DNA from: Lithacetigena sp037446255 [NCBI: Coprothermobacterota bacterium]
GTDB taxonomy: Bacteria > Coprothermobacterota > HKB111
Assembly: GCA_037446255.1 (NCBI GenBank)
Contig: JBBIIY010000003.1
Coordinates: forward strand, 38,859 to 102,858
Direction: 5' to 3'
Length of the DNA: 64,000 nt
In this document: one piece after another, positions 7,930 to 58,254 of the stretch
Position numbering within the stretch: the first letter of the stretch is position 1
Layout: each line of letters starts with the position of its first letter
Notes under the pieces: model-generated
The model's input: only the letters and a program-made list of their open reading frames with translations
What the model was told of the DNA's origin: nothing
The model's database searches: none
Program-made: the position numbers and the translations under genes

Positions 7930-7931
7930 AA

Positions 7932-40401: not shown

Positions 40402-40450
40402 ATAATAAGGTATATTTATTGAATAATTTAGCTCTAATGAGGTGAATATA

Positions 40451-43093: not shown

Positions 43094-43424
43094 TAACATT
43101 ATTAACCTGGTTAAGGGTAGGATATGTGTTTGTCAGCACCTGGAAAATCTGGATGTTAATAAAGCCTGGGCAGCTGACCTGATGTCAGATGTTCTCGCCT
43201 CTCCCACAGAAGGAGCCATTCTTATCACCTCCCTATCTTCTCCCCAGATTGTGAGGACGGCAGAAATGGTAGGAATGGTGGGCATAATCATTGTAAGCGG
43301 AAAAAAGACCGACGATACCATTTTAATTCTTGCCGAGGAATTAGGTATCCCTATAGTATCCACCGATTTATCTTTGTTTGAAACCTGCGGAATTTTATAT
43401 GACCATGGACTCAGAAGCAACTAA
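43083..43424 (+). CDS. DRTGG-domain protein (first copy)
   Basis: Small soluble protein of 113 residues formed by a single DRTGG domain: VCQHLENLDVNKAWAADLMS, then EGAILITSLSSPQIVRTAEM and PIVSTDLSLFETCGILY. DRTGG domains are of unknown ligand and are often seen beside CBS domains, HATPase proteins and [FeFe]-hydrogenase genes. It overlaps valS upstream and the CBS/ATPase gene downstream, and a paralogue lies at 45585-45917. Start is a GTG inside valS. Confidence 0.8.
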   Translation: MKLNNIINLVKGRICVCQHLENLDVNKAWAADLMSDVLASPTEGAILITSLSSPQIVRTAEMVGMVGIIIVSGKKTDDTILILAEELGIPIVSTDLSLFETCGILYDHGLRSN

Positions 43425-44286: not shown

Positions 44287-44288
44287 AA

Positions 44289-45569
44289 ATGAAGGGTTAT
44301 ATGCATTCAATTACTATTGAAGATGATTTATGCAAAGGGTGTACCCACTGTGTTCGTATCTGCCCAACTGAAGCTATCAGGGTGGTAGATGAGAAAGCTC
44401 GTATATTACCAATTAGGTGCATAGATTGTGGAGAGTGTATACGGGTTTGTCCCTATAAAGCCCGAGGTGTGATATTTGACCATATTTCCAGTATTCCTGA
44501 AAGAGATAATGTTATTGTGTTAATACCTCCCGTTTTTTATTTACATTTTGACCCGCCCCCTGCTTTTGCTACGGTAAATAAGTTTATTAAATCACTCGGG
44601 TTTAATAAAGCTTACGATATGAGTTTGATCTTTGAGGTTTATCCGGAATTATTACAATTGTTTATAGATAAAACAGGTAAGAAAAAGGGGCTCATACCTC
44701 CTGTATGTCCGAGTGTCTTAAGATTACTTACTGTCAGTTTTCCGAACTTATTAGGCAATGTTACTATGTTTGACTCTCCCTGGGAGATTAGCGCTAGCCT
44801 GGCTAAGAAAAAAGATAATAATTTAAAGGTAGCCCTCCTTTCCACCTGCCCAGCTCAGATCACTTCTATTAAGTCTCCACTCGGTGTAGACTCCTCCCGA
44901 ATAGATTTTACTATACCAATGAATCATTTTTATCAACTGGCTCGCCGGTATTTTGAAAAAACTCCCCCAGGTGATTTAAGTAATGGAATAATGTCATGTT
45001 GTGGTCAATGGTTTTCTGATGCTATTCCCGATAAAGACATACTATCATTATGCAGTATAAATCGGATAAAGAACACTCTTCATGAAGAAGAGATAAAACA
45101 CAATCTTTCTCCGGAGATTTTAGAGCTCTGGGCTTGCGAGTATGGCTGTGCGGGTGGAATTCTTAATGCTCTATCTCCGGTGGTATTGGTACAGCATCTT
45201 AAAAGGATGAAAAAATCTACAACAACATTGGTTTCTAATGAGTGGAAAGAAGAACTGATTAATGATTTTAAGAATGGTTTGTATGATCTGATAAACCAGA
45301 TTACGGAAAGACCTGTATTGAAGTTAGACGAAGAAATGGAAGTGTCACTTCGGAAATTGGAGCAATTAGAGCATATATTAAATACCCTACCAGGGATAGA
45401 TTGTGGTGCTTGCGGAGCGCCTACCTGCAGAGCTTTTGCTGAAGATGTGGTTATGGGATGGTCTTATATTACAGATTGTATTTTCGTTTTGAAAGACAAA
45501 CTTAAAAAATTAGCTGAAGAGGTTATGGACTTATCTCGCCTTGGCCCATCACCCCAGAGATTTAAATAA
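44289..45569 (+). CDS. [FeFe]-hydrogenase-like 4Fe-4S protein (HsfB/sensory type)
   Basis: A 426-residue protein with three parts. Residues 15-60 hold two 4Fe-4S motifs (CKGCTHCVRICP, CIDCGECIRVCP). The central domain resembles the Fe-only hydrogenase large subunit but with altered motifs: L1 PPVCPSV (C140), L2 STCPAQ (C187), L3 WACEYGCAGG (C283, C287). The C-terminus has an RnfB-like Fe-S motif DCGACGAPTC near residue 371. One H-cluster cysteine per position remains, but the double Cys of L1 and Lys of L2 are missing. More likely a redox or H2 sensor than a catalytic hydrogenase. AGGAGG precedes the ATG. Confidence 0.82.
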   Translation: MKGYMHSITIEDDLCKGCTHCVRICPTEAIRVVDEKARILPIRCIDCGECIRVCPYKARGVIFDHISSIPERDNVIVLIPPVFYLHFDPPPAFATVNKFIKSLGFNKAYDMSLIFEVYPELLQLFIDKTGKKKGLIPPVCPSVLRLLTVSFPNLLGNVTMFDSPWEISASLAKKKDNNLKVALLSTCPAQITSIKSPLGVDSSRIDFTIPMNHFYQLARRYFEKTPPGDLSNGIMSCCGQWFSDAIPDKDILSLCSINRIKNTLHEEEIKHNLSPEILELWACEYGCAGGILNALSPVVLVQHLKRMKKSTTTLVSNEWKEELINDFKNGLYDLINQITERPVLKLDEEMEVSLRKLEQLEHILNTLPGIDCGACGAPTCRAFAEDVVMGWSYITDCIFVLKDKLKKLAEEVMDLSRLGPSPQRFK

Positions 45570-45584
45570 AGGAGGTACGATTTT

Positions 45585-45917
45585 TTGCTGTTAAGAGAGG
45601 TTATTGATAATCTGAATTTACAGGTTTTAAGCAAAGGTAATCTTGAAGTAGAAGTGAGGAGCGGTGTTGTTTCTGATTTACTCAGTTATATAATGGGAAA
45701 CGCTAAAGAAGGTGATTTGTGGTTAACCATACAAACACATATGAATGTAGTTGCAGTTGCCTCACTTTGTAAGGTAGCGGCAGTCATAGTAACCTCCAAT
45801 CTGGAGGTTAACGAGGAGGTGATTAGCAAAGCCCAGGAAGAAGGGATAACCATTCTAAGAAGTTCCTTACCTTCTTATGAACTTTCCGGGAATTTATATA
45901 TATCCGGGATAAGGTGA
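45585..45917 (+). CDS. DRTGG-domain protein (second copy)
   Basis: A 110-residue single-domain protein: GVVSDLLSYIMGNAKEGDLW, AVASLCKVAAVIVTSNLEVN, then AQEEGITILRSSLPSYELSG. It is a paralogue of the 43083 protein with low identity. The TTG start is well supported by AAGGAGG about 10 bases upstream. The stop overlaps the GTG of the PHP gene. Confidence 0.8.
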   Translation: MLLREVIDNLNLQVLSKGNLEVEVRSGVVSDLLSYIMGNAKEGDLWLTIQTHMNVVAVASLCKVAAVIVTSNLEVNEEVISKAQEEGITILRSSLPSYELSGNLYISGIR

Positions 45918-46660
45918 TTGCATACTTGCAGTGGTATAACCTTGATTTACACATACACTCTGTCTTATCTCCCTGTTCTACCTGGGATATGAGTCCTAAG
46001 AAAGTATTAGCAGAAGTCAAAGAGAAAGGTATAGATTTAATCAGTATAACTGACCACCATTCAGTGCGTAATTTTCCAGGTTTCTGTAAACGGGGTAAAT
46101 TATGTGGCGTTAAGGTTATTCCAGCTATGGAGGTGCAAACAAAAGAAGAAGTTCACTTGCTTTTATATTTTCGTACTTACGAACAAGCCATCAGGTTTGA
46201 AGTTGAGGTGCTTAAAAATTCACCATCAATTATTGATGAGGTAAGTGCTATAAAACCTCAATGCGTGGTCAATCAGGATGATATGGTGATTAATGTTGAA
46301 AAACGATTACTGATATTTTCAGTTGATTTAAACCTTGATAGCATTATCAAGCTGGCGAGAACCTACGAAACCCTGGTAATTTTAGCTCATATTAACCGAC
46401 CTGCTTTCAGTATTTACTCTCAATTAGGTTTCATACCTCCAGATATAGATATTGATGGGGTAGAAATATACAATTATATGAATTCTGAACTGTCAATTCC
46501 TGACAATGTAGGAATTATTTATGGTTCAGATGCTCATGATTTATCGACTATAGGTAAATTTATAACTCAAGCCTGGGTTAACGAACCTACCTGGGAAGAG
46601 TTAAGATTAGCGTTAAGAAACATTGGAGGCAGATTATTAAGGAGGAAACATGATTCTTGA
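45914..46660 (+). CDS. PHP-domain phosphoesterase
   Basis: Predicted metal-dependent phosphoesterase of 248 residues. All metal ligands of the PHP fold are visible: DLHIHS, ISITDHHS, IPAMEV, EEVHLLLYF, ILAHINRPAF and GSDAHDL. Related proteins (TrpH/YciV-like) degrade nucleotides or 5'-phosphorylated oligonucleotides; here the linkage to DRTGG and hydrogenase-like genes suggests a signalling nucleotide or phosphoprotein target, which is inference. rnfC starts within its last codons. Confidence 0.85.
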   Translation: MIAYLQWYNLDLHIHSVLSPCSTWDMSPKKVLAEVKEKGIDLISITDHHSVRNFPGFCKRGKLCGVKVIPAMEVQTKEEVHLLLYFRTYEQAIRFEVEVLKNSPSIIDEVSAIKPQCVVNQDDMVINVEKRLLIFSVDLNLDSIIKLARTYETLVILAHINRPAFSIYSQLGFIPPDIDIDGVEIYNYMNSELSIPDNVGIIYGSDAHDLSTIGKFITQAWVNEPTWEELRLALRNIGGRLLRRKHDS

Positions 46661-47951
46661 ACACGAGTTAAATCCGCATGAGTTCAAAATATCGAGTAAT
46701 AAACCCATAGTTTATCTTAAAACCCCCAAGAGAATTGTAATGTTGATGCAACAACATACTGGAGCACCAGCTCAACCGATTGTAAAAGCGGGGGATGCTG
46801 TTTTAAAAGGACAGGTTATTGGAGATTCTCCAGGTTATGTTTTTGCTCCCATTCATTCGTCTATAAGCGGAAAAGTAAAATCAATATCGTCCTGGCTTCA
46901 CCCGATACTTGGCAGAGAAATTGAGTCTATAATCATTGAAAACGATGGCAACACGGATGAAATTATACTAAAACCACTAAATTATCCAATTACCCCTGAG
47001 GACATCAGGCTAAGGGCAAGAGAAGCAGGATTGGTAGGTCAGGGTGGCGCAGCATTTCCTACGCATGTAAAGTTAAACCCAACCAAACCTATTGAATATG
47101 CCATTATCAATGGAGCAGAGTGTGAGCCTTATCTAACTGTGGACCACAGGCAGATGCTGGAGAATCCGGAAAAATTAATTTCTGGATTAAAACTTATCAT
47201 GTTAGCAGTTGGAGCCAAAAAGGGTTTAATTGCTATTGAAGATAATAAAAAGGATGCTATTAAACTGCTGGATGAAATGGTCAGGCAAACTCCAGAGGTT
47301 AGAGTTTTCGTTTTACCCAGTAAGTACCCCCAGGGAGCTGAAAAAGTTATGATTAAAACAATTATTGGAAAAGAAGTGCCCCGTGGAGGACTTCCTCTGG
47401 ATGTGAGTGTAGTGGTTAGTAATGTATCCACAGCTATAAGCCTGGCAGAAGCTGTTTTTGAGGGTAAAGTACTTACCGAGAGAGTAATAACCATTTCCGG
47501 AGACGCAGTCAATGAAGCCATCAACGCTAAAGTTCATTTAGGGGTAATAGTAAAAGATATTGTAGAAAATACAGTTGAGTTTACTGATGGTTACTCCAGA
47601 TTTATAATGGGTGGGCCTATGACAGGTTTTTCTCAGGCTACACTTGATGTGCCTATAATAAAGGGAACATCTGGTTTATTGTTTTTAAGAAAAACCAGGA
47701 TTCAGGAAACAGCAGATTGCATCAGGTGCAGTAGGTGCATTCAAAACTGCCCTCTTAGGCTGATGCCTGCATTTATTACTTCCAGCACCAAATTAGGCGA
47801 CTATTCTAAGGCAGAGTTTTATGGAGCCTCTGATTGTTTTGAATGTGGCAGGTGTTCTTATGTTTGCCCGGCTAATATTCCTCTTGTTCACTATGTTAAA
47901 ATAGCTAAAACCGAATTGTTTAAATTAAGAAAAATGGGTTCAAAGTCATAG
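46650..47951 (+). CDS. rnfC: Rnf ferredoxin:NAD+ oxidoreductase subunit C
   Basis: Peripheral NADH- and FMN-binding subunit of the Rnf complex, 433 residues. N-terminal sandwich-hybrid domain, then the Complex I 51-kDa-like fold with GLVGQGGAAFPTHVKL and INGAECEPYLTVDHR, and two 4Fe-4S motifs at the C-terminus (CIRCSRCIQNCP, CFECGRCSYVCP). GGAGG precedes the ATG, which lies inside the PHP gene. First of six rnf genes in the order CDGEAB, as in Clostridium, Acetobacterium and Thermotoga. Confidence 0.97.
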   Translation: MILEHELNPHEFKISSNKPIVYLKTPKRIVMLMQQHTGAPAQPIVKAGDAVLKGQVIGDSPGYVFAPIHSSISGKVKSISSWLHPILGREIESIIIENDGNTDEIILKPLNYPITPEDIRLRAREAGLVGQGGAAFPTHVKLNPTKPIEYAIINGAECEPYLTVDHRQMLENPEKLISGLKLIMLAVGAKKGLIAIEDNKKDAIKLLDEMVRQTPEVRVFVLPSKYPQGAEKVMIKTIIGKEVPRGGLPLDVSVVVSNVSTAISLAEAVFEGKVLTERVITISGDAVNEAINAKVHLGVIVKDIVENTVEFTDGYSRFIMGGPMTGFSQATLDVPIIKGTSGLLFLRKTRIQETADCIRCSRCIQNCPLRLMPAFITSSTKLGDYSKAEFYGASDCFECGRCSYVCPANIPLVHYVKIAKTELFKLRKMGSKS

Positions 47952-47964
47952 GAGGCAGAGTAAA

Positions 47965-48900
47965 TTGGCAGAATTGAATGAAAGTAAAGTTATAATTTCA
48001 CCTTCTCCTCATTTTCATGCCGATATCAATAGTGATAAAATAATGAATAGAGTTATATTATCACTGGTACCGGCTTCTTTCGCAGCTTTTTACTTTTTCG
48101 GTTGGATTAGTTTTTTGAAAGTTGTGGGTTTATCAGTTGCTTCAGCGATTTTATTTGAATTTATCATACTCAGGTTATTTAAAAGAAAACCCATCGCAGG
48201 AACTTATTCCAGTAGTGTGGTTACAGGATTACTCCTGGCTTTAACTTTGCCTCCTACCTCCCCATGGTGGATACCCATTGTGGGCAGCGCTATTGCTATT
48301 GTTGTAGCGAAAGAATTTTTTGGAGGTCTTGGGCATAATCCTTTTAATCCAGCGCTGGTTGGAAGAGCGGTCTTATTAATTTCCTGGCCCACCCACCTGA
48401 CAACTTTTGTCCAGCCTTTTTCAGGGATAACCACAGCTACTCCCCTGGCTTTTTTCAGGGATAATTTATCCTTACCTTCCTATCAGGATTTATTATTAGG
48501 TAATACTGCTGGCTCTTTAGGTGAAACTTCAGCCATAGCCCTGATATTAGGAGGTTTATTTTTACTCTTATCCAGAACTATTGAATGGCGAATACCTGTT
48601 GCTTATTTAGGGTCCGCTGCTATTTTGAGTTTGACTTTGGGTAGAGATCCGATCTTTGACCTCCTGGCAGGAGGTATTCTTCTGGGAGCATTTTTTATGG
48701 CAACAGATTATGTTACAAGCCCCATTACTCCCTGGGGAAAGCTTTTATTTGGAATAGGTTGCGGTCTATTAACCATTACTATCAGGGCTTTTGGCGGTTA
48801 TCCTGAAGGGGTTACTTATGCCATCCTTATTATGAATGCTTTTGCACCTATGCTGGAACAAGCAACCCTTCCTAGAAAATTTGGGATGGTGCGTAAATGA
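47965..48900 (+). CDS. rnfD: Rnf complex subunit D
   Basis: Membrane subunit carrying covalent FMN, 311 residues with about nine to ten TM helices. The flavinylation motif is SGITTATPLAF (about residue 150), where a Thr receives FMN from ApbE, encoded at 53779. GGLGHNPFNPALVGRA and PEGVTYAILIMNAFAP are family signatures. GGAGG lies nine bases before the TTG start. The stop overlaps rnfG by ATGA. Confidence 0.96.
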   Translation: MAELNESKVIISPSPHFHADINSDKIMNRVILSLVPASFAAFYFFGWISFLKVVGLSVASAILFEFIILRLFKRKPIAGTYSSSVVTGLLLALTLPPTSPWWIPIVGSAIAIVVAKEFFGGLGHNPFNPALVGRAVLLISWPTHLTTFVQPFSGITTATPLAFFRDNLSLPSYQDLLLGNTAGSLGETSAIALILGGLFLLLSRTIEWRIPVAYLGSAAILSLTLGRDPIFDLLAGGILLGAFFMATDYVTSPITPWGKLLFGIGCGLLTITIRAFGGYPEGVTYAILIMNAFAPMLEQATLPRKFGMVRK

Positions 48901-49463
48901 ATGCCCTGAGACTTGGTTTTATATTAATGCTGGTAGGAATTATATCATCAGGAGCCCTGTCTTATGTTTATTTTCAAACTAAACCTATTATTGAGCAACA
49001 AAAAGATGAAGATACGCTACGGATGTTAAATGAAGCATTACCTTCAGCAAAAGGTTTCAGGGAGTTGGATGCCTCAGAATTTGAACCTCTTGATGATTCT
49101 GTAATGACCATCACCAACATATATCTTGGTACCATTAACTCACAGAAGGACCCGGTTGGAGTAGTATTGAAAGGGGTAACAGTAGGCTATGGCGGGGCTA
49201 TTGTAATGCTAATAGGAATTTCCAACGATAATAGAATTACCGGGATTGAAATAATTGAACACAAGGAAACTCCTGGTCTTGGTTCTAAAATTGCTGATGT
49301 ATCATTTACCGGTATGTTTATAGGTAAAACTCTGGAAGACCCTTTAACCATCAAGAACGATTTAACTGCCATAGCAGGAGCAACCAAGTCTTCAGCAGCA
49401 GTTGCAAAACTGGTTAAAAAAATAGCAGAATATGTGTTGAAAAATAGGGAGGCTTGGAAATAA
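48897..49463 (+). CDS. rnfG: Rnf complex subunit G
   Basis: FMN-carrying subunit with one N-terminal TM helix (about 5-25) and an extracytoplasmic FMN-binding domain, 188 residues. The flavinylation site is AIAGATKSSAAV near the C-terminus, and HKETPGLGSKI is the matching conserved loop. Needs ApbE for maturation. Overlaps rnfD at the start and ends 1 base into the rnfE ATG. Confidence 0.95.
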   Translation: MNALRLGFILMLVGIISSGALSYVYFQTKPIIEQQKDEDTLRMLNEALPSAKGFRELDASEFEPLDDSVMTITNIYLGTINSQKDPVGVVLKGVTVGYGGAIVMLIGISNDNRITGIEIIEHKETPGLGSKIADVSFTGMFIGKTLEDPLTIKNDLTAIAGATKSSAAVAKLVKKIAEYVLKNREAWK

Positions 49464-50086
49464 TGAAACAGCTCTGGAAAGATTTTGTAAATGGAATTAT
49501 ATCGGAAAATGCTGTATTAAAACTGATGATAGGTTTATGTCCGGTTCTTGCTGTATCCACAACCGTCATGAATGGGATTGGTATGGGTCTTGCTACCACC
49601 TTTGTTCTTTTGGGTTCAAACATAACCATCGCTCTCATCAGGAATGTTGTCCCTAAGGAAATCAGGATACCTGTATTTATCATTATTATAGCTACCTTTG
49701 TGACTATTACCGACCTATCAATGGCTGCTTATTTTCCATCACTCCATAAAACCCTCGGTATATTTATTCCTCTCATAGTAGTCAACTGTATCATTATGGG
49801 TAGAGCAGAAGCTTTTGCTTCCAGAAATACCCTGATAAGGGCAATTGCTGATGGACTAGGAATGGGGATTGGCTTTATATTGACTCTCGTAGTGCTCTCG
49901 GGTGTGAGGGAATTTCTTGGTAATGGAACTATTTTGGGAATTTCTTTACCTTTTAAAGGTTTTGAACCTGCTTTAATAATGATTCTTCCTCCAGGTGCAT
50001 TTTTTGCAATCGGTATTATGATAGCCATATTTAATAATCTGTTTAAACTGAAAAGTGACGGAGGACACAAACATGGATCTGCTTAA
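49463..50086 (+). CDS. rnfE: Rnf complex subunit E
   Basis: Integral membrane subunit of about 207 residues with six TM helices, homologous to RnfA and likely in antiparallel topology. NAVLKLMIGLCPVLAVSTT and the IPLIVVNCIIMGRAEAFA stretch are family signatures, the latter holding the Cys that binds the membrane 2Fe-2S cluster with its RnfA partner. ATG 49463 is 10 bases after GGGAGG; a TTG at 49454 would sit on that site. Confidence 0.95.
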   Translation: MKQLWKDFVNGIISENAVLKLMIGLCPVLAVSTTVMNGIGMGLATTFVLLGSNITIALIRNVVPKEIRIPVFIIIIATFVTITDLSMAAYFPSLHKTLGIFIPLIVVNCIIMGRAEAFASRNTLIRAIADGLGMGIGFILTLVVLSGVREFLGNGTILGISLPFKGFEPALIMILPPGAFFAIGIMIAIFNNLFKLKSDGGHKHGSA

Positions 50087-50648
50087 GCTTTTCATCGCGG
50101 CATTACTTGTTAATAATATCGTTCTGATGAGATTCTTGGCGCTATGTTCTTATGTAGGAATGACCGCAGAACCCGGACCTGCTTTGGGTATGGGTTGGGC
50201 AGTAACTTTTGTAATGGTGTTAGCCGGAGTAGCAACCTGGTTCTTGAATGTTTTTATTTTACAACCCCTGGGATTATCTTTTTTGAGTACACTCATCTTT
50301 ATCCTGGTTATTGCTTCACTGGTTCAATTGGTGGAGATTTACCTCAGGAAAAGCATACCCTCCCTCTATCATGTTATGGGGATATATCTACCATTGATAA
50401 CTACTAACTGTGCTATACTGGGACTTACTTTTATAAATCAAAGAGAAGGATATACCCTGATACAGTCAATTGTTAATTCAATAGGAGTTGCCCTGGGTTA
50501 CACTCTGGCCATGCTCCTATTAGCTAACCTGCGACAGAGGATTAAGCATAGTAATATACCAAAATTTCTGGAAGGTTATCCCATAGTATTTATATTAACT
50601 GCTATTTTAGCAGTAGCCTTTATGGGATTCACCGGTATGGCCAAGTAA
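50073..50648 (+). CDS. rnfA: Rnf complex subunit A
   Basis: Integral membrane subunit of about 191 residues, six TM helices. LVNNIVLMRFLALCSYVGM at the N-terminus and IYLPLITTNCAILG in the middle are diagnostic; these two Cys positions pair with those in RnfE to hold a 2Fe-2S cluster within the membrane. ATG 50073 is eight bases after GGAGG and overlaps rnfE by 14 bases. Confidence 0.96.
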   Translation: MDLLKLFIAALLVNNIVLMRFLALCSYVGMTAEPGPALGMGWAVTFVMVLAGVATWFLNVFILQPLGLSFLSTLIFILVIASLVQLVEIYLRKSIPSLYHVMGIYLPLITTNCAILGLTFINQREGYTLIQSIVNSIGVALGYTLAMLLLANLRQRIKHSNIPKFLEGYPIVFILTAILAVAFMGFTGMAK

Positions 50649-50660
50649 GGAGATTAAGTT

Positions 50661-51488
50661 ATGATTGAATTTATTATTCAGAGTTTAATAGTTACCGGTG
50701 GATTAGGACTGGTTTTTGGTTTGGGGTTAGCACTATTTTCCCAAAAATTTAAAGTTGAAGAAGACCCTCGTTTAGAGATGATACAAAATCTATTACCCGG
50801 GGCAAATTGCGGAGCTTGCGGTTATCCCGGGTGCAGACAATTAGCTGAATATATTTTACGAGGTGAATTGGGGCCAGAAAAATGTACAGTGGGGGGAAGT
50901 AAAGTAGTTACTGAAATTGGTAAATTATTGGGAATTGAGGTTTCACAGGTAATACCTGGTGTTGCCCGTATTCTATGTCAGGGAGACGAGGCTCGCTCCT
51001 ATAGTAGAGCTGAATACTACGGAATAAATACCTGTAATGCGGCTTCTCAGATTTCTGGCGGATTTAAGCAATGTATTTATGGTTGCTTGGGGTTAGCAGA
51101 TTGCGTTAAAGTTTGTGTTTTTGATGCCCTAAGGATGTCCAGTGATAATTTACCCATAGTTGAAGAAAGTAAATGTACTGCTTGTGGTTTATGTATCAAA
51201 GCTTGCCCCAGAAAAATTATAGCGATTTTTCCCCGAGATAATTATGTTATCATTTCCTGTGTTTCACCCCAGAAAGGTCCAGAAGTCAGAAAAGCCTGTC
51301 AGGTAGGTTGTATCAAATGCGGTATTTGTGTAAAGAACTGTCCTAAAGGAGCAATCCGCCTGGAACCATCTTTAGGAAATTTGGCTGTTATTGACTATGC
51401 TTTATGTGATTATTGCGGAACCTGTGTGGAGAAATGTCCTACAAAATCCATAGTTAACTATATCAAAGTGCCTGTACATGCAGATTAA
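50661..51488 (+). CDS. rnfB: Rnf complex subunit B
   Basis: Ferredoxin-accepting subunit, 275 residues: one N-terminal TM helix (about 4-28), a 4Fe-4S domain with NCGACGYPGC plus a later Cys (GPEKC), then several ferredoxin-type CxxCxxCxxxC motifs (CTACGLCIKACP, CIKCGICVKNCP, CDYCGTCVEKCP). The number of ferredoxin motifs is on the high side, consistent with anaerobe-type RnfB. The AmmeMemoRadiSam LigB-like gene starts inside its last codons, so the operon does not end here. Confidence 0.95.
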   Translation: MIEFIIQSLIVTGGLGLVFGLGLALFSQKFKVEEDPRLEMIQNLLPGANCGACGYPGCRQLAEYILRGELGPEKCTVGGSKVVTEIGKLLGIEVSQVIPGVARILCQGDEARSYSRAEYYGINTCNAASQISGGFKQCIYGCLGLADCVKVCVFDALRMSSDNLPIVEESKCTACGLCIKACPRKIIAIFPRDNYVIISCVSPQKGPEVRKACQVGCIKCGICVKNCPKGAIRLEPSLGNLAVIDYALCDYCGTCVEKCPTKSIVNYIKVPVHAD

Positions 51489-52266
51489 AAAAGGTTTACT
51501 TTTTCCCCACCCCCCATTATTAATAAAAGAGATCGGCGGCAAAAGATTGTTGGAAGTTAATAAAACTTTAAAAGGTATTGAAAAAGCTCTTGCATCTCTG
51601 GAAGGGGTTAGCCTGGATACTATAGTTATTATGGGTCCCCATACCCCTGTTTCCAGAAATGCGATAACCATCCTGGCTTCCAGGGAGGTTAAAGGGAGCT
51701 TTATCAATTTTGGTTTTCCTGAAATAACTCTTTCAGGTGAATGTGACGTAGAATTTATTTCACACCTGGTCTCTAAGGAAAATAAGGTACAATTCAATCC
51801 ATTATATGAAACTTCCCTGGACCATGGTATCATGTTGCCGCTTTACTTTTTACATAAAAAAGGTATTAAAGGAAAATTGGTTGTTACCAGTATTGCCTGG
51901 GAGGGAGTGGATTATCATATGGATTTTGGAAAAATTATCAGTGAAACTGCACGAGAATTAAATAGAAATCTGCTGATAATTGCCAGTGGTGATATGTCTC
52001 ATCGTTTAACTTATAATGCACCTGCTGGGTATGACCCCCAGGGGAAATTGTTTGATCATATGATAGCTAATTTCTTTGAAACTGGAGATGTTTCCAGGGT
52101 AAAAAATATGGATTGGGAGTTATTAGAAAGAGCTGGTGAATGTGGGTATAGACCTTTAATGACCCTGATTGGTGCGTTTTCTGATTCTACCTTTAAATCA
52201 AAACTGTATTCCTATGAATGTCCTTTTGGTGTTGGTTATCTGGTGGGAGGTATAGAGGAAGTATAA
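51478..52266 (+). CDS. LigB/MEMO-like domain protein of the AmmeMemoRadiSam system
   Basis: Class III extradiol-dioxygenase-like (LigB fold) protein, 262 residues. Likely metal ligands are in FPHPPLLI, MGPHTPVSRNA, SLDHGIMLPLYFLH and ASGDMSHRLTY; the C-terminal YECPFGVGYLVGGI is family-typical. In many Bacillota this domain is fused to AMMECR1 as one protein; here a TAA ends it and a TTG in the same frame begins the AMMECR1 gene directly. Biochemical role unknown. The ATG overlaps the rnfB stop by 11 bases. Confidence 0.85.
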   Translation: MQIKKGLLFPHPPLLIKEIGGKRLLEVNKTLKGIEKALASLEGVSLDTIVIMGPHTPVSRNAITILASREVKGSFINFGFPEITLSGECDVEFISHLVSKENKVQFNPLYETSLDHGIMLPLYFLHKKGIKGKLVVTSIAWEGVDYHMDFGKIISETARELNRNLLIIASGDMSHRLTYNAPAGYDPQGKLFDHMIANFFETGDVSRVKNMDWELLERAGECGYRPLMTLIGAFSDSTFKSKLYSYECPFGVGYLVGGIEEV

Positions 52267-52779
52267 TTGCATCCTCTGATTATTCTGGCAAAAGAAGCTG
52301 TGGAATTATACCTGACTGAGGGACGAAAACCTTCTCCAACAATTATTGATGAGTTAAATTGTGATTACCGATTACCAGCACCCTGTTTTGTAACTATACG
52401 TTCTAAAGGAAAATTGCGAGGTTGTATTGGAACAATCTCCAGCACTCAGGAAAATTTAACCTTGGAAATTATAGAAAACGCTATTAAAGCTGCTACCAGA
52501 GACCCTCGTTTTCCTCCCATTGAAACTTGTGAGCTTCCCAACCTGAATTATTCTCTTGATATATTAAGTCCTCTGCAGGAAGTTAGAGATATTTCCAGAC
52601 TTAATCCCCTGAAGTATGGAGTAGTAGTGGAAAAAGGCTTAAAGAGAGGGGTGTTATTACCTGGTATAGAAGGCATAAATTCTGTAGAACAACAAATTCG
52701 CATAGCTCGATTAAAAGCTGGTATTGATGAGGACGATGAAATTAAAATATATTTTTTTGAAGTTCAAAGGTTGGAATAA
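52267..52779 (+). CDS. AMMECR1-domain protein of the AmmeMemoRadiSam system
   Basis: A 170-residue AMMECR1 domain: PCFVTIRSKGKLRGCIGTIS is the hallmark with the conserved RGCIG, followed by AAKAATRDPRFPPI-like AIKAATRDPRFPPIETCEL, SLDILSPLQEV and KRGVLLPGIEG. The Cys of RGCIG is thought to be functionally important, but the reaction is unknown. The TTG start comes immediately after the stop of the LigB-like frame and has GAGGAAG about six bases upstream. The radical SAM gene follows after 19 bases. Confidence 0.88.
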   Translation: MHPLIILAKEAVELYLTEGRKPSPTIIDELNCDYRLPAPCFVTIRSKGKLRGCIGTISSTQENLTLEIIENAIKAATRDPRFPPIETCELPNLNYSLDILSPLQEVRDISRLNPLKYGVVVEKGLKRGVLLPGIEGINSVEQQIRIARLKAGIDEDDEIKIYFFEVQRLE

Positions 52780-52798
52780 GTAAAGGGGATTTAAACTA

Positions 52799-53809
52799 CT
52801 GAAAAAAGCATCTTATTATGAATCCTTAATAGATAATAGGGTTCGTTGCTTTCTCTGTCCCAACCTTTGCCTGATATCTGAAGGAAAAATAGGTAAATGT
52901 GGTGTAAGGGAAAATATTGAAGGCGTCCTTTATACTTTGATTTATAACCGTGCTGCTTCCATAGCAGTTGACCCAATTGAAAAAAAGCCCGTGTATCATT
53001 ATAAGCCCGGAAGTTCAGTTCTTTCTGTAGGGACAGTTGGGTGTAATTTAAGGTGTCGCCACTGTCAGAATTGGGAGTTATCCCGTTCGTCTTGCCAGAA
53101 TGTAAATTTGAGAGATATCAGTACCCACCAGCTTTCTAAAATAGCCTTAAAAACAAACTCTAAAGGAATTAGCTGGACCTATAACGAACCTACTATCTGG
53201 TTTGAATATGTTAGGGAAAGTGCAAAAAATGCGCAAGAGAATAATCTATACACGGTTATGGTTACCAATGGATTTATCAAGGAAAAGCCTTTAAAAGAAT
53301 TACTCAATTATATAGATGTTTACAGAGTTGATATTAAAGCTTTTTCTCGGAACACTTTTAAATTAATCACAGGATTATCTGAGGTAGAAATTCCCATGGC
53401 ATCTGCTTTGCAGGCAAAAGAGTCCGGAATTCATGTGGAAATTGTTACTAACATTATAACTACAATTAATGATGCTGAAGATGAACTTAAGTCAATTGCT
53501 ACTTTTATAAGTGAAAAACTGGGAAATAAAACCCCCTGGCATATTACCCGGTTTTTCCCTTATCTGGAATTTTCTTATCTTACTCCAACTCCTATACAAT
53601 CACTAATCAGGGCTAAAGATATAGGTAAGGAGTGTGGATTAGATTTTATTTATTTAGGGAATGCCAGAGAAATATTAGAAGAAAATACTGTCTGTCCCAG
53701 GTGTAATAGTGTTGCTATAAAAAGAACTGGATTTGAAGTTCATAAAGTTGAAGTTACAGATAAGGGAGATTGTAAGGTTTGCGGAGAGCATTTAAATATT
53801 CATCCCTGA
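52799..53809 (+). CDS. AmmeMemoRadiSam system radical SAM enzyme, probable CTG start
   Basis: Radical SAM enzyme of about 336 residues, related to PFL-activating enzymes. Upstream of the first ordinary start (TTG 52937) the frame stays open to a stop at 52781, and its 46 residues match the family N-terminus, with four conserved cysteines (C17, C20, C24, C34; RCFLCPNLC...GKCGVRE). The only suitable start there is CTG 52799, ten bases after AAGGGGA. The SAM cluster is CNLRCRHC (C82, C86, C89), and a CxxC-CxxC zinc ribbon ends the protein. Substrate unknown; the LigB-like and AMMECR1 partners lie just upstream. Confidence 0.85.
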   Translation: MKKASYYESLIDNRVRCFLCPNLCLISEGKIGKCGVRENIEGVLYTLIYNRAASIAVDPIEKKPVYHYKPGSSVLSVGTVGCNLRCRHCQNWELSRSSCQNVNLRDISTHQLSKIALKTNSKGISWTYNEPTIWFEYVRESAKNAQENNLYTVMVTNGFIKEKPLKELLNYIDVYRVDIKAFSRNTFKLITGLSEVEIPMASALQAKESGIHVEIVTNIITTINDAEDELKSIATFISEKLGNKTPWHITRFFPYLEFSYLTPTPIQSLIRAKDIGKECGLDFIYLGNAREILEENTVCPRCNSVAIKRTGFEVHKVEVTDKGDCKVCGEHLNIHP

Positions 53810-54792
53810 TTCTCTTAGTTTTAGCCTTGCTATTTGCTTACTGGGTAAATAAAGCAGAAACCAAGCCTCGAACTGTTAGAGATTTTGCTATGGATACCTA
53901 TATTGAAATTACTACTTACCGTCATTCTGATGATGCAGTTACGGAAGAGATGTTAAATGATTTTAAATTATTAGAATCAATCTTCAATCGTTACGATGAA
54001 AATTCGGTTGTTTTTGATGTGAATAAAAATGCTTATGAAAAGCCCATTTATATTCCCGCTATCTTTATGAATTTACTCACAGAGAGTTTAAAGTTGTTTT
54101 ATTATACCGAAGGTCATTTTAATCCTGCGATAGGACCTCTGGTAGATATATGGATGAAGGTAATCAAAGGAGAAGAGTTTACTGATTTACCCGAAATTAA
54201 TATATTAAATGAGGCAATGTCTCTAAGTAAAACCAGGAATATAATTATTAATGAACAGGATAGGCAGGTATCCTTTACTATTCCAGGGGTTTCACTTGAT
54301 TTTGGTGCTGTGGTTAAAGGTTTTGCTGTAGATAGAGCTTTTGAAATACTGAAAAACAGGGGGACTGACAGAGCTGTTATAAATGCTGGAGGCACTATAG
54401 GAGTGTATGGTTCTCCGGCGGGAAGGAAATACTGGAGAATTGGTATCCAGCATCCCAGAAGAGAGGGTATTATTGGTGTATTGAATTTAACCTCAAATAT
54501 GGTAGTTTCAACTTCCGGTGATTACGAAAGGTATAAAATTATTAATGGGAAAAGGTATCACCACCTACTAAACCCTTTTACAGGTTATCCATCGGAGGAG
54601 TTGCTAAGCGTAACTATAATAAATAAAAATGGTCTTCTTTCCGATGCTGTTTCTACGGCTGTTATGTCTATGGGTCTGCAGAAAGGGATAGAATTTCTTA
54701 CCCAAAAATCTCTAATGGCTATAATCATAACCCCCGATTTGAAGATTCATTTCACAGGTGATGCTGAAAGTTTATTTCAGCCCGAGTTATGA
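53779..54792 (+). CDS. apbE: FAD:protein FMN transferase
   Basis: Flavin transferase that attaches FMN covalently to Thr in RnfG and RnfD outside the membrane. The 337-residue protein has an N-terminal membrane anchor/signal (about 7-23, no lipobox Cys), then FAMDTYIEITTY, SLDFGAVVKGFAVDRA, AVINAGGTIGVYG, and the metal-binding HHLLNPFTGYP and DAVSTAVMSMG. Its overlap with the radical SAM gene (31 bases) and proximity to rnfCDGEAB make the Rnf subunits the obvious substrates. Confidence 0.95.
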   Translation: MRRAFKYSSLILLVLALLFAYWVNKAETKPRTVRDFAMDTYIEITTYRHSDDAVTEEMLNDFKLLESIFNRYDENSVVFDVNKNAYEKPIYIPAIFMNLLTESLKLFYYTEGHFNPAIGPLVDIWMKVIKGEEFTDLPEINILNEAMSLSKTRNIIINEQDRQVSFTIPGVSLDFGAVVKGFAVDRAFEILKNRGTDRAVINAGGTIGVYGSPAGRKYWRIGIQHPRREGIIGVLNLTSNMVVSTSGDYERYKIINGKRYHHLLNPFTGYPSEELLSVTIINKNGLLSDAVSTAVMSMGLQKGIEFLTQKSLMAIIITPDLKIHFTGDAESLFQPEL

Positions 54793-55175
54793 AACGAGGA
54801 GATTTACTGATTTATCTATTTACCGCTTCTATGTTACTATTTTCTTTTTTACTCTACTTGTTTCTATATTCTGGGTGGGGTTTTAACCAACGAATTGAAT
54901 CAGTAATAGTAGAATATAAAAAACAGGTTTATGCAAAGATACCCCTGCCCTCCGAAGAGAGAACCATTGAGTTAAAAGGTACCTGGGGTAATTTGATACT
55001 TGATCTGAATGGTTATAATGTTAGAATAAACCCATCTTCACCACATTACTGTCCTGATAAAATATGTATGAACCAGGGGTGGATTAGTAAACCACCCGGA
55101 ACTATTGTTTGCTTACCCAACAGGATAATTATTTACTACCAGGGAGGAAACGATATTGATGGACTCACCCACTAA
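54789..55175 (+). CDS. NusG domain II-containing protein
   Basis: A 128-residue protein with one N-terminal TM helix (about 9-28) and an exported NusG-II (DUF) domain with SSPHYCPDKICMNQGWISKP and IVCLPNRIIIYY; the paired Cys residues may form a disulfide or bind metal. Such genes regularly sit beside apbE and Gx-transporter genes in Rnf-containing anaerobes, but no role is proved. ATGA overlap with apbE. Confidence 0.85.
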   Translation: MKRGDLLIYLFTASMLLFSFLLYLFLYSGWGFNQRIESVIVEYKKQVYAKIPLPSEERTIELKGTWGNLILDLNGYNVRINPSSPHYCPDKICMNQGWISKPPGTIVCLPNRIIIYYQGGNDIDGLTH

Positions 55176-55677
55176 CAAGATGGTTAGAATATGTATTCTG
55201 GCAGTACTGGGAGTGGTACTTAATTTAATTGAACCGCCTGTACCTGCTCCGATACCTGGAATTAAGCTTGGTCTGGCTAACCTGATGTCCATAATTGGTT
55301 TGTATTCCCTGGGAACCTATTCTGCTATCTGGATAACCATAATAAGAACTATAACCGTAAACCTATTTCTGGGTTTTGATTTGAGGGGGATTCTAAGTTT
55401 GGGTGGCGGTGTGGTTAGTGCCCTGGTTATGGAGGCAGTATATTATTTTTATAAAAGGGAGACAGGGGTGGTAGCGGTAAGCATGTTGGGAGGCTTGATG
55501 CATAATTTTACTCAATGGTTGATGGTAGTAATATTATTACAACAGCCTTACCTGGTGGTATATCTTCCTTTTTTATTACTAAGCGGAGGGGTAGCAGGGT
55601 TGTTTGTTGGGACAACCGGGGTATATACTTTAAGAAAATTGGGAGGTTTTATAAGTGGCAAGGATTCACAACCGTAA
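55159..55677 (+). CDS. Gx transporter family protein (heptaprenyl diphosphate synthase component I-like)
   Basis: Membrane protein of about 172 residues with five to six TM helices. EPPVPAPIPGIKLGLANLMS at the N-terminus is the family signature. The name 'heptaprenyl diphosphate synthase component I' is inherited annotation; a transporter S-component-like role is more plausible from the fold. Starts at ATG 55159 (or TTG 55156) after GGGAGG, overlapping the NusG-II gene. Confidence 0.83.
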   Translation: MDSPTNKMVRICILAVLGVVLNLIEPPVPAPIPGIKLGLANLMSIIGLYSLGTYSAIWITIIRTITVNLFLGFDLRGILSLGGGVVSALVMEAVYYFYKRETGVVAVSMLGGLMHNFTQWLMVVILLQQPYLVVYLPFLLLSGGVAGLFVGTTGVYTLRKLGGFISGKDSQP

Positions 55678-55924: not shown

Positions 55925-55963
55925 AATTTGGTTAAACCTTCTGATAAAGGAGAAATGAAAATT

Positions 55964-56998
55964 ATGTTTGGTAAAGATATCGCCATAGATTTAGGTACTG
56001 CAACTACTATTGTATATGTAAAAGGAAGTGGAATCTTGGTTAATGAACCCACCATCGTAGCCCTGGAGCGCAGGAGTAATAAAGTGTTTGCTGTGGGTAT
56101 GGAAGCCAGGAGAATGGCAGGTAGAACAGCGGACGATATATTTATCTGCAGACCATTAAAAGATGGTGTCATTGCTGAGTTTTCTATAACCGAATCCATG
56201 CTGGGTTACTTTATAGACAAAGCTTTAAACAGAAATAAATCATTCTGGAGTTTTTTAGCTGGTAAACCTCGGGTTATTGTGGGTATTCCTTCGGGAGCTA
56301 CTCAGGTAGAAAAAAGAGCGGTAGAAGAAGCCGCTTTGGCTTCTGGGGCTCGGGAAGTATATCTTATTGACGAACCTATGGCTGCAGCTATAGGTGCAGG
56401 GTTACCGGTTATGGAACCTCGGGGATGCATGGTATTAGATATAGGTGGTGGTACCACTGAAGCAGCAGTTATTTCCATGGGAGGAATAATTGCCTCTATG
56501 TCAAGCAGAATTGCAGGAGATGAGATGAACGAAGAAGTTAGCAGATTTTTCCGACACCACTATAATTTACTGATTGGAGATTATACTGCGGAAGATATCA
56601 AAATAAATATTGGTTCAGCCTTTCCCTTTAATGGAGTAAAAACAACTCCTGTAAAGGGAAGAGATCTAATCTCAGGTCTTCCCCGGATGGTGGAAGCCAA
56701 TTCTGATGAGATAAGAGATGTTCTTCAAAAAATCTTTTCCGGTATAGCTGACCTTGTGAAATCTACTCTGGAAATTACCCCACCTGAATTATCAGCTGAT
56801 GTTCTGGATAGAGGTATGATGCTGGCAGGAGGTGGAGCTTTAATTAAAGGTTTTGACCAGTTCCTTACCAGGGAAATAGGTATTCCTGTGCATATAGCTC
56901 CCAAAGCTCTGGAATCAGTCGCTCTGGGGGCAGGTAAAGCGCTGGGTAATTTGAGTATATTTAGAAAAGTATTGTTTTCATCACGAACTAATAGATAA
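55964..56998 (+). CDS. mreB: Rod shape-determining protein MreB
   Basis: Actin-like filament protein guiding lateral wall synthesis, about 344 residues. IAIDLGTATTIVYVKGSGI (phosphate 1), VLDIGGGTTEAAVIS (phosphate 2) and LAGGGALIKGFD (adenosine) are intact. ATG 55964 lies about 10 bases after AAAGGAGA; longer frames to 55928 begin near or before the transcription start expected from the promoter at 55916. mreC begins with the next base. Confidence 0.96.
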   Translation: MFGKDIAIDLGTATTIVYVKGSGILVNEPTIVALERRSNKVFAVGMEARRMAGRTADDIFICRPLKDGVIAEFSITESMLGYFIDKALNRNKSFWSFLAGKPRVIVGIPSGATQVEKRAVEEAALASGAREVYLIDEPMAAAIGAGLPVMEPRGCMVLDIGGGTTEAAVISMGGIIASMSSRIAGDEMNEEVSRFFRHHYNLLIGDYTAEDIKINIGSAFPFNGVKTTPVKGRDLISGLPRMVEANSDEIRDVLQKIFSGIADLVKSTLEITPPELSADVLDRGMMLAGGGALIKGFDQFLTREIGIPVHIAPKALESVALGAGKALGNLSIFRKVLFSSRTNR

Positions 56999-57796
56999 AT
57001 GAGTAGGAGCATTCTTCAAGTTTTCCTGCTGCTTCTGATTATTATAGTTCTGTCAATTACTCCTCCAGGTGGAAAACCTTTATTTTCCGTTATCGGGGGT
57101 TCTATTATAGACTCCACCAAAAGTATAATCTCTTTCTGGTGGAATCTTGGCCGAAGTATAGAAGATTGGGGAAGCGCGATTACCAATTTTAAAAATATTT
57201 TAAGAGAAAGGGTTGATTATCAAGAGAAGCTTGAACTTCTCAAAACACTGAATTTGCAGATAGAAAGATTAAGAGCAGAAAACAAAATATTAAGAGATTT
57301 ATGGAAAATTGAGGAACTTCCGATAAATTTAAATTTTGTAGGAGCAAGAGTAATCGGGACAGACTTTAGTGTTTTTTCTTCAGCACTTATTCTGGATAGA
57401 GGAGCACGGGATGGTGTAGTTGAAGGCTTACCCCTTTTATATGGTAAAGGCGTAGCTGGTAAAGTGGTCAGAGTATTTGAAAGTACTTCGTTGGCTCTTC
57501 TTACCAGTAATGAGGATTTTGCTATAGGAGGCATGGTTGACCCTGGGGGAGAAATGGGGGTTGTCAGGGGTGGGATAGAAAATCTAAATATTGAGTTCCT
57601 TTCTTTGAATCTGCAAGTCCAGGTGGGCCAACTGGTAGTATCTTCTTCCAGCGAGGGGATTAATGGTTTGCCCATAGGTATAATAAAGTCACTTGATGTT
57701 ATTGGTAAATTAACTCCTACCGCTAAGATTGAACCCCTGGTAAATCCAGCAAGAGGAAGGTTTTTCCTCATAGTACTGGGAATAAATCCAGATTGA
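56999..57796 (+). CDS. mreC: Rod shape-determining protein MreC
   Basis: Single-pass membrane protein of 265 residues: TM helix about 7-25, coiled coil about 70-100 (YQEKLELLKTLNLQIERL), then the beta-rich periplasmic domain with ARVIGTDFSVFSSALILDRG and LLTSNEDFAIGGMV. It links MreB to PBP2. Starts directly after the mreB stop and overlaps mreD. Confidence 0.94.
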   Translation: MSRSILQVFLLLLIIIVLSITPPGGKPLFSVIGGSIIDSTKSIISFWWNLGRSIEDWGSAITNFKNILRERVDYQEKLELLKTLNLQIERLRAENKILRDLWKIEELPINLNFVGARVIGTDFSVFSSALILDRGARDGVVEGLPLLYGKGVAGKVVRVFESTSLALLTSNEDFAIGGMVDPGGEMGVVRGGIENLNIEFLSLNLQVQVGQLVVSSSSEGINGLPIGIIKSLDVIGKLTPTAKIEPLVNPARGRFFLIVLGINPD

Positions 57797-58254
57797 AAAC
57801 CTATTGGCCTTCAATTATTCTGGTAAGTTCTTTCCTTGTTTCTACCTGGCCCTTTTTCTCTTTATTTGACCTTCCCCTGGCTATATCTATCAGTCAGTCA
57901 GGTAAAGACAACAGGCTTAATTTAACTTTTTCTCTGGCAATACTTTTATGCGCTTCACTTAGCAGGGAGCCTTTATTTTTAGTGGTTTTACTATTATTAC
58001 CCTTCGCTATTCAGTATTTTATGAACCATATAACTATCAGTAGAAATATATTTTTTTCAATTTTTTCAGTTATTTTAAAAGTGATCTTGGTATATATTAT
58101 TTTCCTGTTAATAAAAGTATGGTTTTTCAACCTTATAGTAAGTTACCAATTTATTATTATCCTATTGCCAAAAGTATTATTAACTATGCTTTTGGCATTA
58201 TTCTACGATATTAAAGTATCCCCATGGATATCAAGACAAAGCAGTTTTTCATAG
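57793..58254 (+). CDS. mreD: Rod shape-determining protein MreD
   Basis: Small polytopic membrane protein, 153 residues with four to five TM helices. Sequence is poorly conserved, so the call rests on size, hydrophobicity and position between mreC and the PBP2 gene. TTG start overlaps the mreC stop; the 3' end overlaps mrdA by 31 bases. Confidence 0.85.
   Translation: MKTYWPSIILVSSFLVSTWPFFSLFDLPLAISISQSGKDNRLNLTFSLAILLCASLSREPLFLVVLLLLPFAIQYFMNHITISRNIFFSIFSVILKVILVYIIFLLIKVWFFNLIVSYQFIIILLPKVLLTMLLALFYDIKVSPWISRQSSFS

What the first reader, a model, noticed from the sequence alone, without database searches (positions are those of the whole stretch)
51478..53809. AmmeMemoRadiSam system embedded between rnfB and apbE
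The LigB-like, AMMECR1 and radical SAM genes sit inside the Rnf maturation context: the first overlaps rnfB, the last overlaps apbE, and NusG-II and Gx-transporter genes follow. The system's biochemical role is not established. Tight coupling on both sides suggests a task linked to Rnf assembly, flavinylation or protein modification in the same cell compartment. This is a concrete guilt-by-association lead.
Basis: partly seen in the sequence, partly recalled or inferred. Interest (0 to 1): 0.75.

Follow-up and report, generated by a model that had tools for sequence, protein, structure and literature searches.

The report
Radical SAM trio inside Rnf–ApbE locus
A three-gene enzyme system of unknown job really does sit between the genes of an energy pump and a flavin-attaching enzyme, but related genomes keep the trio without the pump or the flavin enzyme, so most of the neighbourhood looks like inherited gene order; one gene of the trio, and apparently exported versions of the system elsewhere, still hint at a link to flavin-based electron transfer in the cell envelope.

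Summary
In detail: valS–(sensor genes)–rnfCDGEAB–LigB/Memo–AMMECR1–AmrS–apbE–NusG_II–Gx–mreB, tightly packed, in the same order in both held Ca. Lithacetigenota genomes, though AMMECR1 is eroded in one. The Rnf-maturation reading is mostly not supported. Seven other genomes of the same GTDB phylum keep AMMECR1–AmrS before mreB (five as valS–LigB–AMMECR1–AmrS) but show no RnfC over cut-off, ApbE or Gx. Across 63 genomes ApbE and Gx co-occur perfectly, RnfC and ApbE co-occur, but AmrS is independent of both; likewise in 148 deltaproteobacterial genomes. The embedding is best read as one ancestral gene order, split or trimmed in Caldisericota. One tie survives: AmrS abuts apbE in 21 Caldisericota genomes, and in 11 more a divergent, selected paralogue (AmrS*) abuts apbE while canonical AmrS lies elsewhere. 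In passing: in a deltaproteobacterial phylum AmrS often bears a Tat-type N-terminus and nearby Memo/AMMECR1 a predicted signal or anchor; in two lineages an FMN_bind/NapH-like flavoprotein adjoins the genes. Interest lies there, not in Rnf assembly.

The parts
46650..51488 (+). rnfCDGEAB, complete Rnf operon
   Evidence: TIGR01945 477 bits (cut-off 246), TIGR01947 106.2 (102), TIGR01944 112 (68.7); D, E, A by order and match in L001/L002, not by own family search
51478..52266 (+). LigB/Memo-type protein B of the AmmeMemoRadiSam system
   Evidence: PF02900 118 bits, PF01875 42 bits, TIGR04336 27.7 (cut-off 26)
52267..52779 (+). AMMECR1, protein A of the system
   Evidence: TIGR04335 129 bits (cut-off 99), PF01871 145
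52799..53809 (+). AmrS, radical SAM enzyme (probable CTG start)
   Evidence: TIGR04337 297 bits (cut-off 220); C-x3-C-x2-C and N-terminal Cys motif visible
53779..54792 (+). apbE, FAD:protein FMN transferase, N-terminally anchored
   Evidence: PF02424 240 bits; hydrophobic N-terminus
54789..55175 (+). NusG_II protein (EetA-like)
   Evidence: PF07009 75.8 bits; hydrophobic N-terminus
55156..55677 (+). Gx/EetB-like ECF-S-type membrane protein
   Evidence: PF07456 117 bits, ECF_trnsprt below cut-off
40442..43093 (+). valS, left border of the conserved locus
   Evidence: 44.5% identical over 878 residues to the valS-like protein of L106 (itself named by eye)
55928..58254 (+). mreB, mreC and a probable mreD, right border of the conserved locus
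   Evidence: named by match between loci and by eye, not by family search

Best explanation
The three genes are an ordinary, complete AmmeMemoRadiSam system with a LigB-type B protein, carried inside one inherited gene order: valS - rnfCDGEAB - LigB - AMMECR1 - AmrS - apbE - NusG_II - Gx - mreB. That order was probably present in the common ancestor of Lithacetigenota, Coprothermobacterota and Caldisericota and was later split or trimmed. Rnf and ApbE-NusG_II-Gx form one functional unit (Rnf flavinylation fed by exported FAD, as proposed for other bacteria). The trio is a separate, cytosolic radical-SAM/metal-protein modification system that is probably co-transcribed with them but not needed by them. 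Shown: anatomy, gene order in three lineages, independent presence. Inferred: common ancestry of the order, co-transcription, and the trio's chemistry (a PflA-like radical SAM reaction using low-potential electrons, with AMMECR1 and the LigB protein as substrate-handling or metal partners).
For: AMMECR1-AmrS before mreB in 7 of 7 non-Lithacetigenota genomes of the same GTDB phylum; in five of them valS-LigB-AMMECR1-AmrS-(small ORF)-mreB; none of the seven has RnfC over cut-off, ApbE or PF07456. Caldisericota show halves of the same order: rnf-X-LigB-AMMECR1 (G004, G005, G020 on one contig; G019, G021 at contig ends), rnf-X-apbE-Gx-mreB without trio (G059, G062), metG-tatD-nfnAB-AmrS-apbE-NusG_II-Gx-maf-mreB (L016, L144, and L143 without a called NusG_II), and nfnAB-AmrS-maf with ApbE and Gx absent (G053, G057). 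Positive control in the same 63 genomes: ApbE x Gx 43/0/0/20, RnfC x ApbE p=4e-6, while AmrS x RnfC p=0.41 and AmrS x ApbE p=0.67. Deltaproteobacterial phylum of G011: p=0.49 and 1.0. AU tests on 59 rows (13 long or AmrS* rows dropped from 72) do not reject one clade for the AmrS of Lithacetigenota + Caldisericota A/C (p=0.67) or with Coprothermobacterota added (p=0.27).
Against: AmrS is hard to separate from apbE in Caldisericota (21 genomes with canonical AmrS, 11 with AmrS*), though the flanks are equally conserved. FMN_bind/NapH next to an anchored Memo in deltaproteobacteria is an independent hint of a flavin link. The AmrS tree is poorly resolved, so vertical inheritance of the order is not proven. 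Genomes are mostly MAGs of unknown completeness, relatedness is not corrected for, and AmrS is so common (56/63, 138/148) that presence/absence has little power to show a positive link.
Confidence: 0.6

Rival explanations
1. AmrS (and its relatives) serves the ApbE-EetAB flavin module or another flavinylated envelope electron carrier: it modifies or activates a protein of that path, or is reduced by it. The other two trio members are not bound to it.
For: AmrS-apbE adjacency in 2 Lithacetigenota and 21 Caldisericota genomes; divergent AmrS* (best family TIGR04337 at 100-110 bits in the three tested, next best 27-48; C-x3-C-x2-C kept; dN/dS 0.11-0.27 over 21 pairs of 7 genomes) adjacent to apbE in 11 genomes where canonical AmrS sits on another contig within 2 kb of AMMECR1; FMN_bind/NapH-like protein next to AmrS with membrane-anchored Memo in 3 of 60 deltaproteobacterial loci, two lineages.
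Against: AmrS is present in 17 of 20 ApbE-less genomes and stays as nfnAB-AmrS-maf in G053, G057; among the AmrS rows listed for the deltaproteobacterial phylum (a cut list), read by eye, none lies within 5 kb of ApbE; the flank metG...mreB is equally conserved, so adjacency may be plain synteny; in the three FMN_bind loci AmrS itself has no predicted signal.
Confidence: 0.2
2. The neighbours supply electrons, not substrates: AmrS needs low-potential ferredoxin electrons, and lies beside whichever ferredoxin enzyme the lineage uses.
For: Beside AmrS or its trio: Rnf in Lithacetigenota, NfnAB in Caldisericota A and C, a 2-oxoacid:ferredoxin oxidoreductase-like set (named by eye) beside AmrS*.
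Against: In the five Coprothermobacterota-like loci with LigB the neighbours are valS and mreB; ferredoxin enzymes are common genes; no test of physical coupling.
Confidence: 0.1
3. One reading: the trio is a dedicated maturation or modification system for Rnf.
For: Overlapping genes on both sides of the trio in the window, rnfB-LigB and AmrS-apbE overlaps also in L001 and L002; rnf-X-LigB-AMMECR1 in five Caldisericota genomes.
Against: AMMECR1-AmrS without Rnf in 7 of 7 related genomes; RnfC and AmrS independent in 63 and in 148 genomes; Psychracetigena keeps Rnf with AMMECR1 eroded.
Confidence: 0.07

Closest known systems
AmmeMemoRadiSam system (NCBIfam TIGR04335/TIGR04336/TIGR04337)
   Same: All three members over their curated cut-offs and adjacent.
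   Different: B protein is LigB-type (PF02900 far better than Memo PF01875) and only just over the TIGR04336 cut-off; set between rnfB and apbE.
Rnf-apbE-eetA-eetB clusters (EetB = PF07456, FAD-export subunit; mBio 2023, PMC9973259, section 11 and passages read)
   Same: rnf, apbE, NusG_II and PF07456 genes in one cluster; that paper reports eetB beside apbE in 2,169 genomes and beside Rnf genes in 572 genomes of Clostridia. That EetA is NusG_II-like is recalled.
   Different: Three AmmeMemoRadiSam genes lie between rnfB and apbE; they are not mentioned in that section, and 'radical SAM', 'Memo' and 'AMMECR1' do not occur in the main text of PMC8238504.
PflA-type glycyl-radical-enzyme activases
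   Same: Next-best NCBIfam hit and the only PDB hits (E up to 0.001) of AmrS.
   Different: Far below those families' cut-offs; AmrS has extra N- and C-terminal Cys motifs.

Membership tests
AmmeMemoRadiSam system | radical SAM member TIGR04337 over cut-off, C-x3-C-x2-C motif | tested here: met
   (297/220); motif
AmmeMemoRadiSam system | A protein TIGR04335 over cut-off | tested here: met
   (129/99)
AmmeMemoRadiSam system | B protein TIGR04336 over cut-off | tested here: met
   (27.7/26, marginal); LigB PF02900 118 bits
AmmeMemoRadiSam system | biochemical activity | not testable with these tools
   no activity was found in the listings
Rnf complex | six genes rnfCDGEAB, RnfC/RnfG/RnfB over cut-off | tested here: met
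   RnfD, E, A by order and by match in L001/L002, not by own family search
Rnf complex | FMN attachment motif in RnfG | tested here: inconclusive
   AGATKS at residue 160, found with a loosened pattern; first residue departs from the usual [DS]GA[ST]x[ST], which is recalled; the same pattern found none in RnfD
ApbE-EetAB flavin export and flavinylation module | ApbE, NusG_II and PF07456 genes adjacent | tested here: met
dedicated Rnf maturation factor | present only or preferentially where Rnf is | tested here: not met
dedicated Rnf maturation factor | Rnf defective without it | not testable with these tools
   needs a mutant

The most novel reading that the evidence does not exclude
AmmeMemoRadiSam is a maturation or repair system for flavin- and metal-dependent electron carriers of the cell envelope. 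In Lithacetigenota and Caldisericota the cytosolic AmrS, or a divergent AmrS* paralogue, is wired to the ApbE-NusG_II-Gx flavin export and flavinylation module; in deltaproteobacteria much of the system has moved outside (Tat-exported AmrS with signal-bearing or anchored Memo and AMMECR1, often near a membrane spermidine-synthase-like protein), and in two lineages an FMN_bind/NapH-like flavoprotein stands beside AmrS and an anchored Memo. A radical SAM enzyme working outside the cytosol would need an unknown source of SAM and electrons there.
Probability: 0.18. Interest if true: 0.85.

Novelty: new variant of a known kind. Interest (0 to 1): 0.5.

Why it matters
AmmeMemoRadiSam is widespread (AmrS over cut-off in 138 of 148 genomes of one phylum; human MEMO1 and AMMECR1 belong to the same Pfam families, recalled) and no job for it turned up in the papers found. 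The work removes an attractive but misleading clue (Rnf assembly), points to genomes that keep the trio without Rnf, and gives two sharper, testable leads: a selected AmrS paralogue beside apbE, and apparently exported systems. If radical SAM chemistry really happens outside the cytosol, that would break a general expectation about SAM-dependent enzymes.

Tried and rejected
Rnf-specific maturase: rejected as main reading by presence patterns and co-occurrence. Embedding unique to this contig: rejected. Several independent origins of the AmrS-apbE linkage within Caldisericota and Lithacetigenota: not claimed, since the downstream genes are the same. AmrS* as a pseudogene: rejected (intact in the loci read, motif kept, dN/dS 0.11-0.27). 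AmrS* as a copy of that lineage's canonical AmrS: disfavoured (p-AU 0.025, tested against one long-branched canonical sequence, L124); its grouping with Caldisericota A/C AmrS has only 74/89 support. Linkage of AmrS* relatives to ApbE in the deltaproteobacterial phylum: none seen by eye among the rows, apart from G204, where AmrS, rnf and apbE lie within about 14 kb without being adjacent (L137). No structure was predicted; Bacillota genomes were not searched, because no handle led there. Rfam, promoter, repeat, composition and viral tools were not used.

Errors and hand work of mine: presence lists and coordinates were typed; one coordinate is wrong (G003, printed gap 910; it is 110), and its second table, labelled 'without 6 smallest assemblies', kept G036, which is as small as some dropped, so only the table of all 63 is used. 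The rule missed the Tat-like N-terminus of L137 that one search shows (L163, same gene). The deltaproteobacterial 2x2 counts were read by eye; G115 was taken as under the AmrS cut-off from its E-value (2.8e-61). One search dropped 13 of 72 rows.
Full report
Observation. The block is valS – CBS/ATPase kinase – [FeFe]-hydrogenase-like Fe-S protein – DRTGG – PHP – rnfCDGEAB – LigB/Memo – AMMECR1 – AmrS – apbE – NusG_II – Gx – mreB and on. All three trio members pass their NCBIfam cut-offs, the B protein only just and with a much better LigB than Memo score. AmrS lacks an ATG/GTG/TTG start before its N-terminal Cys region; CTG 52799 is probable: L001 has CTG and L002 TTG at the matching place. The window is a close relative of Ca. 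Lithacetigena glycinireducens (AmrS 90% identical).

Is the embedding conserved? A scan of genome contigs with AmrS gave 220 relatives, of which the best 80 were kept. In both Lithacetigenota genomes among them (L001, L002) the order from rnfC to mreB is the same, with AMMECR1 reduced to a remnant in L002. Of the 80 loci, 16 have apbE directly after AmrS: these two and 14 Caldisericota (L004, titled only 'bacterium', belongs there because its genome G005 is in the phylum set). None of the other 64 shows apbE within the held flank, which varies in length and is short in many. rnf genes close to AmrS occur only in L001 and L002; L013 has an rnfE-like gene about 6 kb away on the other strand.

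The trio without Rnf and ApbE. The GTDB phylum of L001's genome has nine held genomes, all with AmrS over cut-off. Besides the two Lithacetigenota, seven unnamed ones (probably Coprothermobacterota: an inference from PMC9751293, passages read, which names that phylum among the two closest relatives, and from genome size) have AMMECR1–AmrS before mreB. In five (G012–G016) the order is valS–LigB–AMMECR1–AmrS–a small ORF–mreB; in G017 and G018 it is AMMECR1–AmrS–mreB with other genes to the left, and LigB is on another contig in G017 and not found in G018. A small ORF also lies before mreB in L001 and L002, there after Gx. None of the seven has RnfC over cut-off, ApbE or PF07456. So the trio and the Rnf/ApbE/Gx set are separable, with the same borders.

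Caldisericota show the pieces. In five genomes the order is rnfCDGEAB–X–LigB–AMMECR1 (X, a large secreted protein; three on one contig, two at contig ends). In G059 and G062 it is valS–folC–rnf–X–apbE–Gx–mreB without trio. In G003 and G030 rnf–X is followed by other genes; LigB was found in none of the other Caldisericota genomes of this group searched, apart from a weak sub-cut-off row in G028 (which left out G038–G052). In 21 genomes AmrS abuts apbE, in the loci read with nfnAB upstream and Gx–maf downstream. In G053 and G057, which lack ApbE and Gx, AmrS remains between nfnAB and maf. The window's order contains these pieces, so one ancestral order with later splitting and loss is the simplest reading. 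AU tests do not reject the AmrS of these lineages being one clade (p 0.67, 0.47, 0.27, 13 of 72 rows dropped), but the tree itself is poorly resolved and places Lithacetigenota apart.

Co-occurrence. In the 63 genomes (9 + 54), ApbE and PF07456 are present in the same 43 and absent from the same 20; RnfC and ApbE co-occur (p=4e-6); AmrS and AMMECR1 co-occur (p=8e-4); AmrS or AMMECR1 with RnfC or ApbE do not (p 0.41–0.67). The first rows are a positive control that the method sees coupling here. Relatedness of the genomes is not corrected for. In 148 genomes of the phylum of G011 (a 'Deltaproteobacteria' MAG, which NCBI ranks put in Myxococcota; the tool gives no phylum name) AmrS is over cut-off in 138, RnfC in 45, ApbE in 84; AmrS is independent of both (p 0.49 and 1.0). 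Among AmrS rows listed (the list is cut), read by eye, none lies within 5 kb of ApbE; G204 has AmrS, rnf and apbE within about 14 kb (L137).

What remains for AmrS and ApbE. In another Caldisericota lineage (G038–G052) a second protein, AmrS*, abuts apbE in 11 genomes; in those 11 the canonical AmrS is on another contig, within 2 kb of AMMECR1 (read in full for G043, L124). In four more (G041, G046, G048, G049) contig ends or fragments prevent a statement. AmrS* matches TIGR04337 best in the three tested (100–110 bits; next best 27–48), lacks the N-terminal Cys region, keeps C-x3-C-x2-C and the C-terminal Cys pairs, and is under purifying selection (dN/dS 0.11–0.27 in 21 pairs of 7 genomes). 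It groups with Caldisericota A/C AmrS (support 74/89) and not with the one canonical AmrS of its lineage that was in the tree (p-AU 0.025). So the copy beside apbE was kept and changed while an ordinary system sits elsewhere. This fits a link to the ApbE module but also strong local synteny (metG–tatD … maf–mreB is conserved too). AmrS is present in 17 of 20 ApbE-less genomes, which speaks against dependence.

Compartment. LigB/Memo, AMMECR1 and AmrS of the window have no hydrophobic stretch; ApbE, NusG_II, Gx, RnfG and RnfB do. The trio is therefore probably cytosolic, ApbE's active domain outside (established for ApbE). Elsewhere this differs: in the deltaproteobacterial phylum, 16 of 60 AmrS loci have a Tat-type N-terminus and 4 a Tat-like one. 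The 60 are not a random draw: part of the first 20 (L165–L184) was picked for long frames, and the 40 of L185–L224, with 9 and 2 such N-termini, follow the score-ordered list. A stricter pattern marks 14 of 47 AmrS frames against 10 of 422 other ORFs in the same loci. In all 14 loci with Memo or AMMECR1 nearby at least one of them has a predicted signal or anchor (examples); some such tag is borne by 153 of 422 control ORFs under a laxer start rule. A membrane spermidine-synthase-like protein (PF01564; NF037959) lies nearby in 9 of the 60, and in L137, L103 and L104; it also lies about 4 kb from unsignalled AmrS in the Chloroflexota loci L044 and L074. In three loci of two lineages (L175; L185 and L186, AmrS 62% identical between them) an FMN_bind/NapH-like protein adjoins AmrS and a membrane-anchored Memo; AmrS itself has no predicted signal there (the Pfam match was run on L175 only). 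The same rule marks AmrS in 1 of 96 loci of other phyla, apparently a frame artefact, and Memo or AMMECR1 in six, five of them LigB–AMMECR1 frames where the tag falls upstream of AMMECR1. These are heuristics, not SignalP.

Literature. 'AmmeMemoRadiSam' occurs in five held papers, seen as a listing only, none about its function by title or start of abstract; 'AMMECR1' with 'radical SAM' in one (listing). PMC9973259 (section 11 and passages read) makes PF07456/EetB the FAD-export subunit in Listeria and reports eetB beside apbE in 2,169 genomes and beside Rnf in 572 Clostridia genomes; this explains apbE–NusG_II–Gx next to rnf without the trio. PMC8238504 (passages) holds none of 'radical SAM', 'Memo', 'AMMECR1' in its main text. 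PMC12174285 (passages) names ApbE and NqrM as maturation proteins of these pumps, and the word 'radical' does not occur in it. Searches for Tat-exported or periplasmic radical SAM enzymes (listings, and passages of PMC10924467 and PMC10599522) showed no report of an exported AmrS; most subscription papers are not in the library. MEMO1 binds iron (PMC11081632, title).

Verdict. The embedding is real and shared by its phylum, but the guilt-by-association with Rnf does not survive. It is mostly conserved gene order around a common, separate system. The AmrS–ApbE tie, AmrS* and the apparently exported systems are the parts worth following.

Noticed in passing
L145-L224 (deltaproteobacterial phylum of G011), e.g. 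L165:6083-7252, L169:5839 on and 7061-8587, L176:6592-7863: AmrS with Tat-type signal peptides, and nearby Memo/AMMECR1 with predicted signal peptides or membrane anchors: an apparently exported AmmeMemoRadiSam system.
   Followed up: partly
L166, L169, L176, L180, L202, L205, L206, L207, L210, L137, L103, L104: Membrane spermidine-synthase-like protein (PF01564, NF037959 on examples) near AmrS, in all but L206 an AmrS with a Tat-like, Sec or TM N-terminus.
   Followed up: partly
L175:4498-8797, L185, L186: FMN_bind plus NapH-like (Fer4_5) membrane protein next to AmrS with membrane-anchored Memo (AMMECR1 too in L175); two lineages.
   Followed up: partly
L112-L116, L132-L136: AmrS*, a divergent AmrS paralogue without the N-terminal Cys region, upstream of apbE in one Caldisericota lineage.
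   Followed up: yes
L002:9840-9998: AMMECR1 of Ca. Psychracetigena reduced to a remnant between intact LigB and AmrS; no PF01871 match elsewhere in that MAG.
   Followed up: partly
window 52780-52937: AmrS probably starts at CTG 52799; the first ATG/GTG/TTG start would remove its first Cys motif.
   Followed up: no
window 43378-46660: CBS/ATPase kinase, [FeFe]-hydrogenase-like Fe-S protein with incomplete H-cluster motifs (by eye), DRTGG and PHP genes directly before rnfC, like a hydrogenase-type redox sensor set attached to Rnf.
   Followed up: no
L105:6727-9210, L120:7149-9497: Large secreted protein X with weak IgGFc_binding match, directly after rnfB in 10 of 13 Caldisericota rnf loci read (some by eye); not matched in L130 and L131, L129 ends before it.
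   Followed up: no
L001:10948-11196, L002:12857-13105, L096:9777-10019, L097:9084-9332, L098:9230-9472, L099:3682-3930, L100:1036-1284: A small ORF of about 80 residues precedes mreB both in Lithacetigenota (after Gx) and in the related genomes (after AmrS); not compared in sequence.
   Followed up: no
G002:C235 (L103, L104): Two further AmrS genes with TM or signal-peptide N-termini on one contig of the Psychracetigena MAG; the contig may be a contaminant.
   Followed up: no
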